Assembly (NCBI RefSeq): GCF_000165425.1
Contig: NW_001799400.1
Span: 399,636 to 463,635 of the forward strand
Direction of reading: 5' to 3'
DNA: 64,000 nucleotides
Origin: Paramecium tetraurelia
Lineage: Eukaryota; Ciliophora; Oligohymenophorea; Peniculida; Parameciidae
This document shows, in pieces, positions 25,140-28,984 of the stretch. The position numbers were made by a program, and so were the translations under genes. The stretch's first letter is position 1, and the number at the start of each line of letters is the position of its first letter. The notes under the pieces are model-generated. The model did not search any database, was not told the DNA's origin, and saw only the letters and a program-made list of their open reading frames with translations.

Positions 25140-26995
25140 ATGGCATCTTCGATCTTGCTTTGTTTTCTTGATTATTATTAAAATAAAATAATATTATTAA
25201 TGAGATATGCATAAAATAGTTCAAGTGAATTCGTTTTAGGGATAGCATTTTTGGTGTTGGGCATGATTTACACAACGATATTCTTTTTTGGTGTAATCAG
25301 ATATTGTAAAATGGGGAAGAGAACAAAATACTTGGGAAAGCAATTTTACTTATCTATTGTATTGTCTTGTTTGGCATATATGTTGAATATGGCTTTGTAC
25401 TTATATGATGTACATTTACAAATGTAAAATAGGTTTTTAAATCTCAACCTACTGATGAGTATATTGTGAGTATTGAAAAATAGCTGTTAAATACAATATA
25501 TGTTCCTGATGGCTTATTTTGGATAGTTTATCAATCATTGTTTTGGACAGTGGTTTGTTTGCATTATGACTCACATCTGCATATAGGATAATAGGATGAA
25601 CTTCCATATAATCCAAATATGTTGATTAATGCTACAAAAGACATTTGTTTAGTATATGGAATAGCTCAATTAATTGTTGTGTTATTATATAACTTTGATT
25701 AAATTAAAAGTGGAGTATTATTTTACATCAACATCTGCATCAATCTATCGATTCCTGTCTAATTGATAATAACATCTCTATACCTATAATATAAATATTC
25801 AGGATCCCCATTCAAATCGTCAAAATAAGAAAATAATTCAAATAGATTGTAAAAGTTAATATTTTATTGGACAATCCTAAGAGTTTTTCAAATCATTAGC
25901 AATATTTTATTAATGGAAAATCAGGAAAGTATAGAGAAGTTCTTTTCATCCCAATTAAGTCAAAACCAACTGTTGTTGTATATTTCAATACTCATAATTG
26001 ATCTATTATTGACTAACATATTTCCATTTATCTTGGCCCTTAGACAGTAAAGTTTTTCGATATTTTTGGGTCACAAAAATACTACAATGAGTACTGTTTC
26101 AGATCAGCCAATTCATTAACAATTGATAAATGATAATAAGAGCTCAGTAATGGAGAGGAAATAGATTTAATTTGATTACAATGAAATAATGAGATAGAAT
26201 ATGAATTAATAAGCAAAACGATAAAAACCAAATGGATTCGGATACATTATTGTCTGTCAAATATAATAAAAAAGTTATGGAATGAGAGTGATTGAATTCA
26301 AATAACTGTAACCTTATTTGATTGAATAGATAAAGTAGGAAATTGAATAAGTGAATTAATTAAATCATTAACAACTTTATCACATTCGTGGATTCAAAAT
26401 AGTAGAAAGTAAGGTAGTATATCTAACCAAATTTTATTAATATTCCTTACACAGTTATCTAGCATAGTATTAGATTTCGATAGAAGAAAAGATTAAGATC
26501 TTAATTTAACTGTTAAATGGACTCAATTATCTGCACAAATAAGGTCTTTGTCATGGGAGTTTGACATCGGAAAATGTAATGGTTAAACCAAATGGTCATG
26601 TCAAAATAAGTAAATGTGATATGTTATCTTTTCTAGTTGATTTCGGTCTATTTGGGATTAAGAAATACTAATCATTATTGTAGTTTTACACAAACAAATC
26701 TGCATTTACAGCTCCAGAATTGATTTAACAAAGAGGGTTGGTTGTGAGTGGATCATAATAAGGAGACATATACAGTGTTGGAATGATTATGTATGAGATG
26801 TTTGAAAAGAAAGTGCCTTTTGAAGGATTATAACTATAAAATATTTAGGATTGTCTTAACAAAGCAGTAAGGCCTAAGATTGAGTCTCAATCTTTGATGG
26901 ATGATATCATTAGATGGTGTTGGCAACAGGATATAGAGAAGAGACCATTGGTTGATTAGTTATTAAATGTAATTGAAAAAATATAAATAAAATGA
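25140..26995 (+). CDS. Seven-helix membrane protein fused to a kinase-like (pseudokinase) domain (601 aa)
   Basis: N-terminal half: seven hydrophobic helices, e.g. EFVLGIAFLVLGMIYTTIFF, FYLSIVLSCLAYMLNMALYL, DICLVYGIAQLIVVLLY, LLLYISILIIDLLLTNIFPF. C-terminal half, from about residue 360: kinase-like fold with PNGFGYIIVCQ (loop), YGMRVIEFKQ (Arg at the usual Lys), LCHGSLTSENVMV (about 463; HRD catalytic Asp replaced by Ser, as in the kinase-homology domains of receptor guanylyl cyclases), IIDFGLFG (DFG kept), TAPEL and GDIYSVGMIMYEMFEKKVPF. Introns 25410-25432 (23 nt) and 26610-26636 (27 nt, in frame without stop; removal gives the usual VKIIDFG). Likely a membrane receptor signalling without phosphotransfer. 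Confidence 0.85.
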
Positions 26996-28984
26996 GTGGT
27001 ACAATAGTTGTGGGGTCAAATATTTACGAGACTGAATTCTTGGACGAAATTTTTATCTATTATGGCAACAAGACCAACAACACCATTGGCTTTAAGGATG
27101 GGTTGATAATTAGTCCAAAAAAAATGGAATTGCCAGAATATAAAATGAATAGATCTGAACGAGGAGAAATCATCATGGCAATAATTAAGGAAGCCATGAA
27201 TCTGATGGAATACTCAAAGTTATCAGATATGGGCATTATTAACATGTTTGAATTACAATACATAAATCAATTGAAATCATATCCATCACTAAGATTTTAA
27301 TTGATGGATAGAGAGCAGCCATCAGTGTTAATGGATGTTCGTAAATCCTATTTTACTATGCATAATTGTTACTAAATAATTAAGACTTTAAATACAGATC
27401 CCTCCACATATTTTAAGAATAAATTTGTGCTTTTGAGGTACCCTGAAAAAAAAATGATTGTTCAAATTAAATCAGTTGTGCTTGATTAAGAGTTCACATA
27501 TAAGGGTTTATCTTTGGAAGACTACTTTAAATAAAAATATTAATTGAGGAGCAAATCAAGTGTTTATTTAGAAACATACAACACTCAGAATATTAAGAAA
27601 TAATTCTTAATTGCAGAATTTTGTGAATTGAAAATAGATTATATTGAATAAGATGTCACTGTGTATTGTCAACAGCTGGAATATTGGAATAAAATTATTA
27701 ATAATAGTTCATCATTTATTTAATTCTTAAATTAGTATAAATTCATAATCAGAAATGAGTAAGTTGAATTCAAGTAATAATACTTAGAACCTGGAAATTT
27801 AGCATTAAATAATCAAACTAAATCAATATTTTAGATTGTGGCCTCCAGAACATCAAGTGAATTTGAGTACTACTACACTGATTTCTTTCTTAAAAATCCC
27901 ACTTCTTTTACAACCTCACTGACCATCAATAAATTGATGATTTTAGTAACTAGAGAAATCATTGAACTTAGAGACAACTTTAAATCATTTTTAGAAAAAT
28001 TTGATTTATTCATCAAATCCAGATAATACAAAATATCATAACCATAAATTTATGATATAAATAATAATTTGAATGAAATCCTAGAAAAATATGTCACTGA
28101 AGATGCATATGTACTTTTTGTTGGAGATCAAAATACAGATTTTATCTAAGCAAGAAATACTTTGTTATCCAAGGCCATTCCTAATTAAATAATTATTCTT
28201 CCCATATAAGATTAAGAAATAAATAGATTATTAGCCATGATGACTGCCAATCTTGGTAGTGTGCCTTGGGCTATTAGAGAAATTAATGGATTAATTACTA
28301 ATAAAAAGAGCGCTGTCTTAGGTATCTGGAAAAGCGAGAATTCTTATTCTGCATGTCTCAGCATCAATAAATATCTCAACAAGTATATATCCTCGTTTGG
28401 AGATTTAGATTAAGTTCTAACCCTTCTTTTAGCCACTTATTATGCCACCCATAAAATATTGGCTAATTAAATCATTGTGTTTGCTTAAGATGATTATACA
28501 CAGATTATGGAACAAAGAATTCTAGGAGTCATTTAATTGATAAGAGATCAAGGATTGGCATAGCAAATCTTAAAACCTGAAGTTGTTATGGTTTAAGTAA
28601 AGGATGCCACGGCAGAAAGATACTTCACATATTTTGAAAGAAATTTGTAATATATTATTTCTATCTTATTCTAGTGAATCTTACTATTGTAAAAACCCTT
28701 AAGTAGGTTGTATAATCCCCATCAATGAGAAGTAAGGGAGATTTTCATTCCATTCTTAGAGAGGAGAACAAGGATGTTTATAAGCCTAATAATTACATAT
28801 TAGTTCAACCAACACAAAAGAAATCGCTTAATTATACTATCATCTGATTTTCTTAAATTTCGATTTGAGTTCCACCACTTATTTACCTGCACCACTTCAT
28901 TATGCCAAAAAATTGTCAAAACACCAAATTTAGAGTGAACAATACAAAAAAGCAATAGAAAAAGGATTTTTGTTATTTGTTTGA
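26992..28984 (+). CDS. Divergent Piwi/Argonaute-family protein (654 aa), probably slicer-dead
   Basis: Argonaute proteins bind small RNAs; in Paramecium Piwi-type members guide DNA elimination and silencing. Domains: N-terminal/linker with VLMDVRKSYFTMHN; PAZ at about 140-260 (NKFVLLRYPEKKMIVQIKSV, LEDYFKQKYQL, FLIAEFCELKI, matching FLEYY...Y and LIPELCxLTGL); PIWI at about 395-640 (MMTANLGSVPWAIREINGL, LGIWKSENSYSACLSINKYL, FAQDDYTQIMEQRI, SFHSQRGEQGC, YLPAPLHYAKKLSKHQ). The first catalytic Asp (GID) is Trp (GIW), and the final His (YAH) is Lys; only the middle Asp may remain. One 28-nt intron, 28647-28674. It starts within the stop codon of the preceding gene and is shorter than typical Piwi proteins at its N-terminus, so the start may be incomplete. 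Confidence 0.88.

What the first reader, a model, noticed from the sequence alone, without database searches (positions are those of the whole stretch)
26992..28984. Divergent Piwi-like protein lacking catalytic residues
PAZ and PIWI domains are readable, but the first catalytic Asp of the RNase-H fold (usual GID) is Trp (GIW, about residue 445) and the terminal His (usual YAH) is Lys (HYAKK, about 627). Only AQDD may supply the middle Asp. It is also short at the N-terminus. A slicer-dead Argonaute could act as a small-RNA carrier or competitor, or be a degenerating paralogue. Basis: motifs seen; DDH requirement known for slicer Argonautes; loss of activity inferred.
Basis: partly seen in the sequence, partly recalled or inferred. 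Interest (0 to 1): 0.75.

Follow-up and report, generated by a model that had tools for sequence, protein, structure and literature searches.

The report
Conserved slicer-dead Piwi in Paramecium
This Paramecium gene encodes an Argonaute-family protein that has lost its RNA-cutting site and most of its usual guide-RNA anchor, yet natural selection still preserves it, so it probably does a useful job without cutting.

Summary
One gene with one 28-nt intron (26992-28984, 654 aa, ciliate code) encodes a diverged Piwi protein, 109-157 residues shorter than ten relatives in the same genome. None of the four DEDH catalytic residues is present: Asp to Trp446, glutamate-finger loop deleted, second Asp to Gln499 (Glu in the paralogue), His to Lys630. 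Lys alone would not be decisive; Drosophila Piwi has it too. Four of five MID positions that hold the guide's 5' phosphate are changed.

It is not degenerating. An intact whole-genome-duplication twin (C164, 88.5% identical) gives dN/dS 0.092 (bootstrap 0.066-0.125), and dN 0.056 equals that of two other Piwi twin pairs. PIWI changes most and PAZ/L2 least in amino acids, the reverse of those controls, but after correction for synonymous rate this contrast is weak.

It is probably the named, uncharacterised PiwiD group (Ptiwi16/17, also in P. bursaria); no sequences were available to prove it.

Best reading: a retained non-slicing Piwi that still holds RNA through PAZ and a remodelled, partly basic MID pocket. 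An RNA-free scaffold is the main rival. No expression or RNA-binding data were available.

The parts
26992..28646 (+). Exon 1 of the Piwi-like gene: reduced N/L1, PAZ, L2, MID and first half of PIWI (residues 1-551 and two bases of 552)
   Evidence: Open frame in code 6; gene model; first 45 codons dN/dS 0.048 against the paralogue
28647..28674 (+). 28-nt intron GTA...TAG
   Evidence: Its removal continues the frame into the PIWI C-terminus; intron at the same place, 31 nt, in the paralogue; no transcript data
28675..28984 (+). Exon 2: C-terminal half of PIWI, ends LLFV, stop TGA
   Evidence: Pfam Piwi hit spans residues 458-635
27523..27540 (+). PAZ motif YFKQKY (178-183); Y/F/Y at the aromatic positions that read Y/Y/Y in the ten Ptiwi proteins compared
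28141..28155 (+). MID pocket F384 (usual Tyr) to R388 (usual Lys)
28186..28188 (+). MID pocket Q399, the one of the five pocket residues kept
28225..28251 (+). MID pocket R412 to N420 (usual Lys at both)
28327..28329 (+). W446 at the first catalytic Asp (hhalign), or that Asp and six following residues deleted (MAFFT)
   Evidence: hhalign; MAFFT
28393..28398 (+). S468-F469, where the glutamate-finger loop of other Ptiwi proteins is missing
28486..28488 (+). Q499 at the second catalytic Asp (Glu in the paralogue)
28907..28909 (+). K630 at the catalytic His
   Evidence: same letter in Drosophila Piwi 6kr6

Best explanation
It is a stably retained, non-slicing Piwi protein, one of two whole-genome-duplication twins. 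It very probably cannot cut RNA (shown: the four active-site residues and the finger loop are missing in alignment; inferred: no activity). It most likely works by holding RNA, or a protein partner bound to RNA, through its PAZ and L2 region together with a remodelled MID pocket that remains partly basic (F, R, Q, R, N). In this reading it carries or sequesters a small RNA whose 5' end is not handled in the standard way, or supports other Piwi complexes, instead of slicing. RNA binding and the pathway are inferred, not shown.
For: Both copies are intact at 654 aa; dN/dS 0.092, bootstrap 0.066-0.125. dN 0.056 equals that of the two other Piwi twin pairs with full models (0.056 and 0.056). Regional dN: N/L1 0.062, PAZ 0.034, L2 0.031, MID 0.057, PIWI 0.072, against controls PAZ 0.066/0.070 and PIWI 0.026/0.031; an older pair also has PIWI lowest. 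Interaction on amino-acid differences z 3.6, p 3e-4, contrast chosen after seeing the data. PIWI dN/dS is 0.123 here against 0.048 and 0.063; PAZ+L2 is 0.053 against 0.038 and 0.055, that is, undiminished. The PAZ Y/F/Y positions and the pocket Gln are kept, and two pocket lysines become arginine. Collinear flanks with C164: 13 blocks over 150 bases between window 6556 and 48131. Passages of two papers give precedents: worm WAGOs combine divergent pocket residues with 5'-triphosphate guides (PMC10101689), and ERGO-1 is said, data not shown, to have a degenerate MID although it must bind a guide (PMC6468775).
Against: No transcript, small-RNA, protein or phenotype data. The inversion of constraint is weak once synonymous rate is used: PIWI over PAZ+L2 dN/dS ratio 2.33 (bootstrap 1.02-5.91) here against 1.25 (0.46-3.73) and 1.13 (0.46-3.01) in controls, whose PAZ/L2 dS is high (1.59, 1.12); the intervals overlap. 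PAZ scores below the Pfam cut-off; one PAZ aromatic (Y>M) and the LIPEL proline (P>A) are changed, and only 1 of 6 apolar and 3 of 6 polar invariant PAZ positions are kept. The structure model was unusable (pLDDT 34.5), so pocket geometry is unseen.
Confidence: 0.45

Rival explanations
1. RNA-free scaffold: the Argonaute fold is kept as a protein-binding platform and no guide is loaded.
For: Four of five 5'-phosphate pocket residues and all four active-site residues are changed; 2 of 12 polar positions invariant in ten Ptiwi proteins are kept in PIWI. Precedent: Med13 keeps many Argonaute features but is judged unlikely to bind nucleic acid through that interface (passage of PMC12477606).
Against: The PAZ Y/F/Y positions are kept and PAZ+L2 dN/dS is as low as in the controls; two of the pocket changes stay basic.
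Confidence: 0.35
2. Competitor or regulator of active Ptiwi proteins: it shares partners or small RNAs with slicing Ptiwi proteins and limits them.
For: It shares the domain order with catalytically intact paralogues, and 15 other Piwi loci were found in the genome.
Against: No evidence of shared partners; the altered pocket argues against sharing the same guides; not tested.
Confidence: 0.12
3. Degenerating paralogue or pseudogene.
For: Long branch (2.2 substitutions per site), loss of many invariant residues, and PIWI dN/dS about twice that of the controls.
Against: dN/dS 0.092 over 654 codons, no stop or frame break in either copy, same dN as the two full control pairs.
Confidence: 0.03
4. 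Still an active nuclease with a rearranged active site (for example D500/D501 and K630).
For: Acidic residues stand near both lost Asp positions (E449 here, D449 in the twin; D501 in both), and Lys at the His position occurs in Drosophila Piwi.
Against: The first Asp, the finger Glu and the second Asp are out of register or missing in two alignments; the second position differs between twins (Q/E); PIWI has the highest dN of the five regions.
Confidence: 0.05

Closest known systems
Ptiwi16 / Ptiwi17 (PiwiD group of Paramecium)
   Same: A two-copy Piwi group in P. tetraurelia; this genome also has 17 Piwi loci found, two of them this diverged pair (PMC8059543 passages). PiwiD has one P. bursaria gene, and 20 of 22 predicted copies are kept in 11 aurelia genomes.
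   Different: No Ptiwi16/17 sequence was available here, so identity is by count and divergence only. No small-RNA class is listed for them in the table seen.
Canonical Ptiwi proteins of the same genome (for example C175, C73/C198, C155)
   Same: Same domain order, homologous over nearly the whole length; 14-20% aligned identity to the ten compared
   Different: Eight of the ten have DEDH and C25/C166 have E-D-D-H; nine of ten have Y-K-Q-K-K in MID (C163 has Gln at the fourth). The window protein has neither.
C138 (L043), a second Piwi without the catalytic set in this genome
   Same: Catalytic residues mostly lost (I, C, D, Q)
   Different: Keeps all five MID pocket residues: by sequence an ordinary non-slicing guide carrier
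Nematode WAGO Argonautes
   Same: Divergent 5' pocket residues (passage of PMC10101689); that WAGOs lack the catalytic residues is recalled
   Different: The WAGO used in PMC12477606 falls on the AGO-clade branch (passage); WAGO guides are 5'-triphosphate RdRP products; nothing comparable is shown for this protein
Med13 / MedPIWI
   Same: Argonaute-like features without a usable nucleic-acid interface (passage of PMC12477606)
   Different: Med13 is a Mediator subunit (recalled); the window protein aligns to Piwi proteins across N-PAZ-MID-PIWI

Membership tests
Argonaute/PIWI superfamily | PIWI domain | tested here: met
   Pfam PF02171 36.2 bits over cut-off 28.9; hhalign to ten Ptiwi proteins E 7e-16
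Argonaute/PIWI superfamily | PAZ domain | tested here: inconclusive
   Pfam PF02170 only 11.7 bits (cut-off 28.8), and no six-frame match at this place in the genome scan; PAZ region aligned in hhalign and the YFxxxY motif kept
Slicer Argonaute | DEDH/DEDD catalytic tetrad | tested here: not met
   W446 or gap, deletion, Q499, K630
Guide-loading Argonaute (5'-monophosphate) | MID pocket Y-K-Q-K-K | tested here: not met
   F-R-Q-R-N; 1 of 5 kept
Ptiwi16/17 (PiwiD) | Orthology to Ptiwi16/17 sequences | not testable with these tools
   No sequences held; 17 Piwi loci found here and 17 named in the table
WAGO-like Argonaute | Binds RdRP-made 5'-triphosphate small RNA | not testable with these tools
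   Needs immunoprecipitation and small-RNA sequencing
Pseudogene | Broken frame or dN/dS near 1 | tested here: not met
   Intact in both copies; dN/dS 0.092, bootstrap 0.066-0.125

The most novel reading that the evidence does not exclude
A PIWI-clade Argonaute has been rebuilt, and held under selection, as a non-cutting protein that no longer uses 5'-monophosphate guides. It would either be a ciliate parallel of worm WAGOs that binds RdRP-made small RNAs with an unusual 5' end, or an Argonaute whose working part is PAZ-L2, holding RNA 3' ends or partner proteins.
Probability: 0.27. Interest if true: 0.7.

Novelty: new variant of a known kind. Interest (0 to 1): 0.42.

Why it matters
Argonautes without slicer residues are common (a passage of PMC10101689 says relatively few AGOs possess the tetrad), but they usually keep the guide pocket (recalled). 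This pair has lost most of both and still has the same dN as two other Piwi twin pairs. It gives a testable case of what an Argonaute can do without cutting and perhaps without an ordinary guide, in an organism where gene silencing by feeding makes the test easy.

Tried and rejected
Structure prediction of the window protein alone gave mean pLDDT 34.5 and was not used; no fold search was made. The paralogue and other Ptiwi proteins were not handed to that tool because its stated rule does not list the loci they came from. Relatives outside this genome: two scans of genome contigs and one of viral contigs found none by tblastn; the patterns are back-translated, apparently with the standard code, so ciliate Gln codons could be missed. 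NCBIfam: no family. PDB: the single protein had three hits at E up to 1, of which only Drosophila Piwi (6kr6, E 0.0028) is a relative; the two-sequence profile found it at E 0.078. A kinase-Piwi fusion by a hidden intron was considered: the only GTA...TAG stretch across the junction that one search lists (18-41 nt) is 39 nt, which leaves the two frames apart; rejected by hand reasoning. 'Constraint inverted towards PAZ/L2' was my stronger claim; on checking dN/dS by region it stands for amino-acid change but not firmly for dN/dS, so it was weakened, the best explanation lowered from 0.5 to 0.45, the scaffold rival raised from 0.3 to 0.35, the novel reading lowered from 0.3 to 0.27 and interest from 0.45 to 0.42. 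Papers not held: PMC3105430 and PMC4066745, two Ptiwi papers cited in PMC8059543, and a DOI tried from memory for the published version of a third cited Ptiwi preprint; they may already discuss Ptiwi catalytic residues. Literature searches made: (listings and abstract openings only). In the held library one paper, PMC8059543, came up for Ptiwi16/17 with Paramecium. Of the papers opened only passages were seen: PMC8059543, PMC4937312, PMC11724296 (nothing on these genes), PMC10772731 (not used), PMC12477606, PMC3528672, PMC10101689, PMC6468775. Rows left out: C202, C134, C192 and pseudogene C80 are not in the protein alignment and residue table because their models were incomplete or broken; C134, C192 and C202 entered as partial sequences in the dN/dS controls and the tree; C80 in neither. 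C138 is a partial model without its N-terminus and was left out of the ten-protein profile and invariant count. The regional contrast was tested on three pairs (window, C25/C166, C73/C198); an older pair (C155/C196) is only, and C90/C163 only (dN/dS 0.146, dS 3.3).

Full report
What is there. The window reads as Paramecium DNA (ciliate code 6, short GTA...TAG introns, Ptiwi relatives; species not determined), on contig C178 of a 69-Mb genome. The gene runs from ATG 26992 to the stop at 28984, with one 28-nt intron, and encodes 654 residues. An intron lies at the same place in a paralogue on contig C164, with a different sequence and length (31 nt).

Family. Pfam recognises Piwi (36.2 bits, cut-off 28.9) at residues 458-635; PAZ is below its cut-off. 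Against PDB sequences the only relative found is Drosophila Piwi 6kr6 (E 0.0028); a profile of the two twins does worse (E 0.078). A canonical Ptiwi of the same genome (C175) matches Piwi-like protein 1 at E 2e-87. Profile-profile comparison of the twins with ten other Ptiwi proteins aligns residues 5-654 to 98-810 at E 7e-16. The domain order is therefore that of a whole Argonaute with a reduced N-terminal part; it is 109-157 residues shorter than the ten. The two alignments differ on whether the first 97 residues are missing or gaps are spread through N/L1. Aligned identity to the ten is 14-20%.

Catalytic site. In hhalign W446 sits on the first Asp, the glutamate finger falls in a deletion, Q499 sits on the second Asp, and K630 on the His. 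MAFFT agrees except that it places the first Asp in a gap. In the paralogue the second position is Glu. Lys at the His position is not decisive: Drosophila Piwi has it (a figure legend in PMC3528672 calls it DDK). The loss of the other three residues is decisive by sequence; no activity was assayed.

Guide pocket. The pocket residues named for human AGO2 include Y529, K533, Q545 and K570 (passage of PMC10101689; K566 is recalled). The five columns read Y-K-Q-K-K in nine of ten comparison Ptiwi proteins and Y-K-Q-Q-K in C163; the twins read F-R-Q-R-N. A separate count over positions invariant in the ten (whose five polar MID positions overlap the pocket set only in part) finds the window protein keeping 1 of 5 polar MID, 2 of 12 polar PIWI, 3 of 6 polar PAZ and 3 of 4 polar N/L1; 3 of 3 apolar MID, 4 of 14 apolar PIWI, 1 of 6 apolar PAZ and 0 of 2 apolar N/L1; and 0 of 2 in L2. 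So fold columns are eroded as well. A second Piwi without the catalytic set, C138, keeps all five pocket residues, which makes it a useful contrast.

Selection. The twins differ by dN 0.056 and dS 0.61, dN/dS 0.092 (bootstrap 0.066-0.125). The two other Ptiwi twin pairs with full models also have dN 0.056 (dN/dS 0.062 and 0.076); two pairs with partial models are lower (0.016 and 0.015) and one old pair is higher (0.146, dS 3.3). The gene is thus not decaying, though it is less constrained than the most conserved Ptiwi pairs. The first 45 codons are under strong constraint (0.048), which supports the annotated start. By region, the window pair has dN 0.062 in N/L1, 0.034 in PAZ, 0.031 in L2, 0.057 in MID and 0.072 in PIWI, while the two control pairs have PIWI lowest (0.026, 0.031) and PAZ higher (0.066, 0.070); region limits were drawn by me on C175. 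On amino-acid differences, the PIWI versus PAZ+L2 contrast between the window pair and the controls gives z 3.6, p 3e-4, chosen after seeing the table. Against this, synonymous rates also vary by region in the controls. The PIWI/PAZ+L2 ratio of dN/dS is 2.33 (1.02-5.91) here, against 1.25 (0.46-3.73) and 1.13 (0.46-3.01), with overlapping intervals. The fair statement is that PIWI looks about twofold relaxed (0.123 against 0.048 and 0.063) while PAZ+L2 is as constrained as in the controls (0.053 against 0.038 and 0.055).

History. C164 is collinear with the window in 13 blocks over 150 bases between 6556 and 48131, at 78-87% identity (only 42 kb of C164 were compared), so the twins are read as a retained whole-genome-duplication pair (the duplications themselves are background knowledge). 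In a midpoint-rooted FastTree of 16 Ptiwi sequences, three of them cut partial pieces and C138 a partial model, the pair sits on a branch of 2.2 substitutions per site. The genome scan found 15 other Piwi loci (a lower bound), one of them a pseudogene, which makes 17 with this pair. The table in PMC8059543 names 17 P. tetraurelia genes, of which Ptiwi16 and Ptiwi17 form PiwiD with one P. bursaria gene; 20 of 22 predicted aurelia copies are retained (passages). Identity with that group is likely but unproven here.

How it probably works. A non-slicing role is close to certain by sequence. Two readings remain for what it does instead. It may bind RNA through PAZ and a remodelled pocket; for this speak the kept YFxxxY positions, undiminished constraint on PAZ+L2, the kept pocket Gln, and Lys-to-Arg changes that keep charge. 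Worm precedents suggest that a divergent pocket can go with unusual guides. Or it may be an RNA-free scaffold, for which Med13 is the precedent. I favour the first, at about 0.45 against 0.35.

Already known context. [quoted passage not shown] The gene group is named in print. I found no description of its pocket loss in the searches listed under Tried and rejected, but key Ptiwi papers were not held.

Limits. No expression, RNA-binding or phenotype data; no sister-species sequences; the structure model is unusable. Gene models are by script, without transcripts. dN/dS is by the Nei-Gojobori counting method, without correction for codon bias.

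Noticed in passing
26951-27026: The upstream kinase stop (TGA 26993-26995) overlaps the Piwi start (ATG 26992) as ATGA, in both twins. The 76 nt around it differ at one base between twins, against about 18% over the aligned blocks (429 of 28,044 overlapping 76-nt windows, those of this block included, have one mismatch or none). The Piwi promoter may lie in kinase coding sequence, or the two genes may share an mRNA.
   Followed up: partly
25466-26995 (+): The upstream ORF has an N-terminal part that looks hydrophobic by eye, followed by a kinase domain (Pfam Pkinase 1.2e-27), with HGSL..EN where HRDL..N is usual (recalled) in both twins and DFG kept: a possible pseudokinase under purifying selection (dN/dS 0.087). 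A 27-nt intron is inferred at 26610-26636; the true start was not determined.
   Followed up: partly
L043 2176-4066 (contig C138): A second Piwi without the catalytic set: Ile, Cys, Asp, Gln at the DEDH positions but all five MID pocket residues kept; partial gene model.
   Followed up: partly
L035 and L038 (contigs C25, C166): A Ptiwi twin pair with Glu at the first catalytic Asp and Asp at the glutamate-finger column.
   Followed up: no
L044 (contig C80): A Piwi pseudogene with in-frame TGAs and frame breaks.
   Followed up: no
L040 near 2780-2900 (contig C202): One apparent frame break in an otherwise conserved Ptiwi copy (dN/dS 0.015 over the part compared): assembly error or recent lesion.
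   Followed up: no
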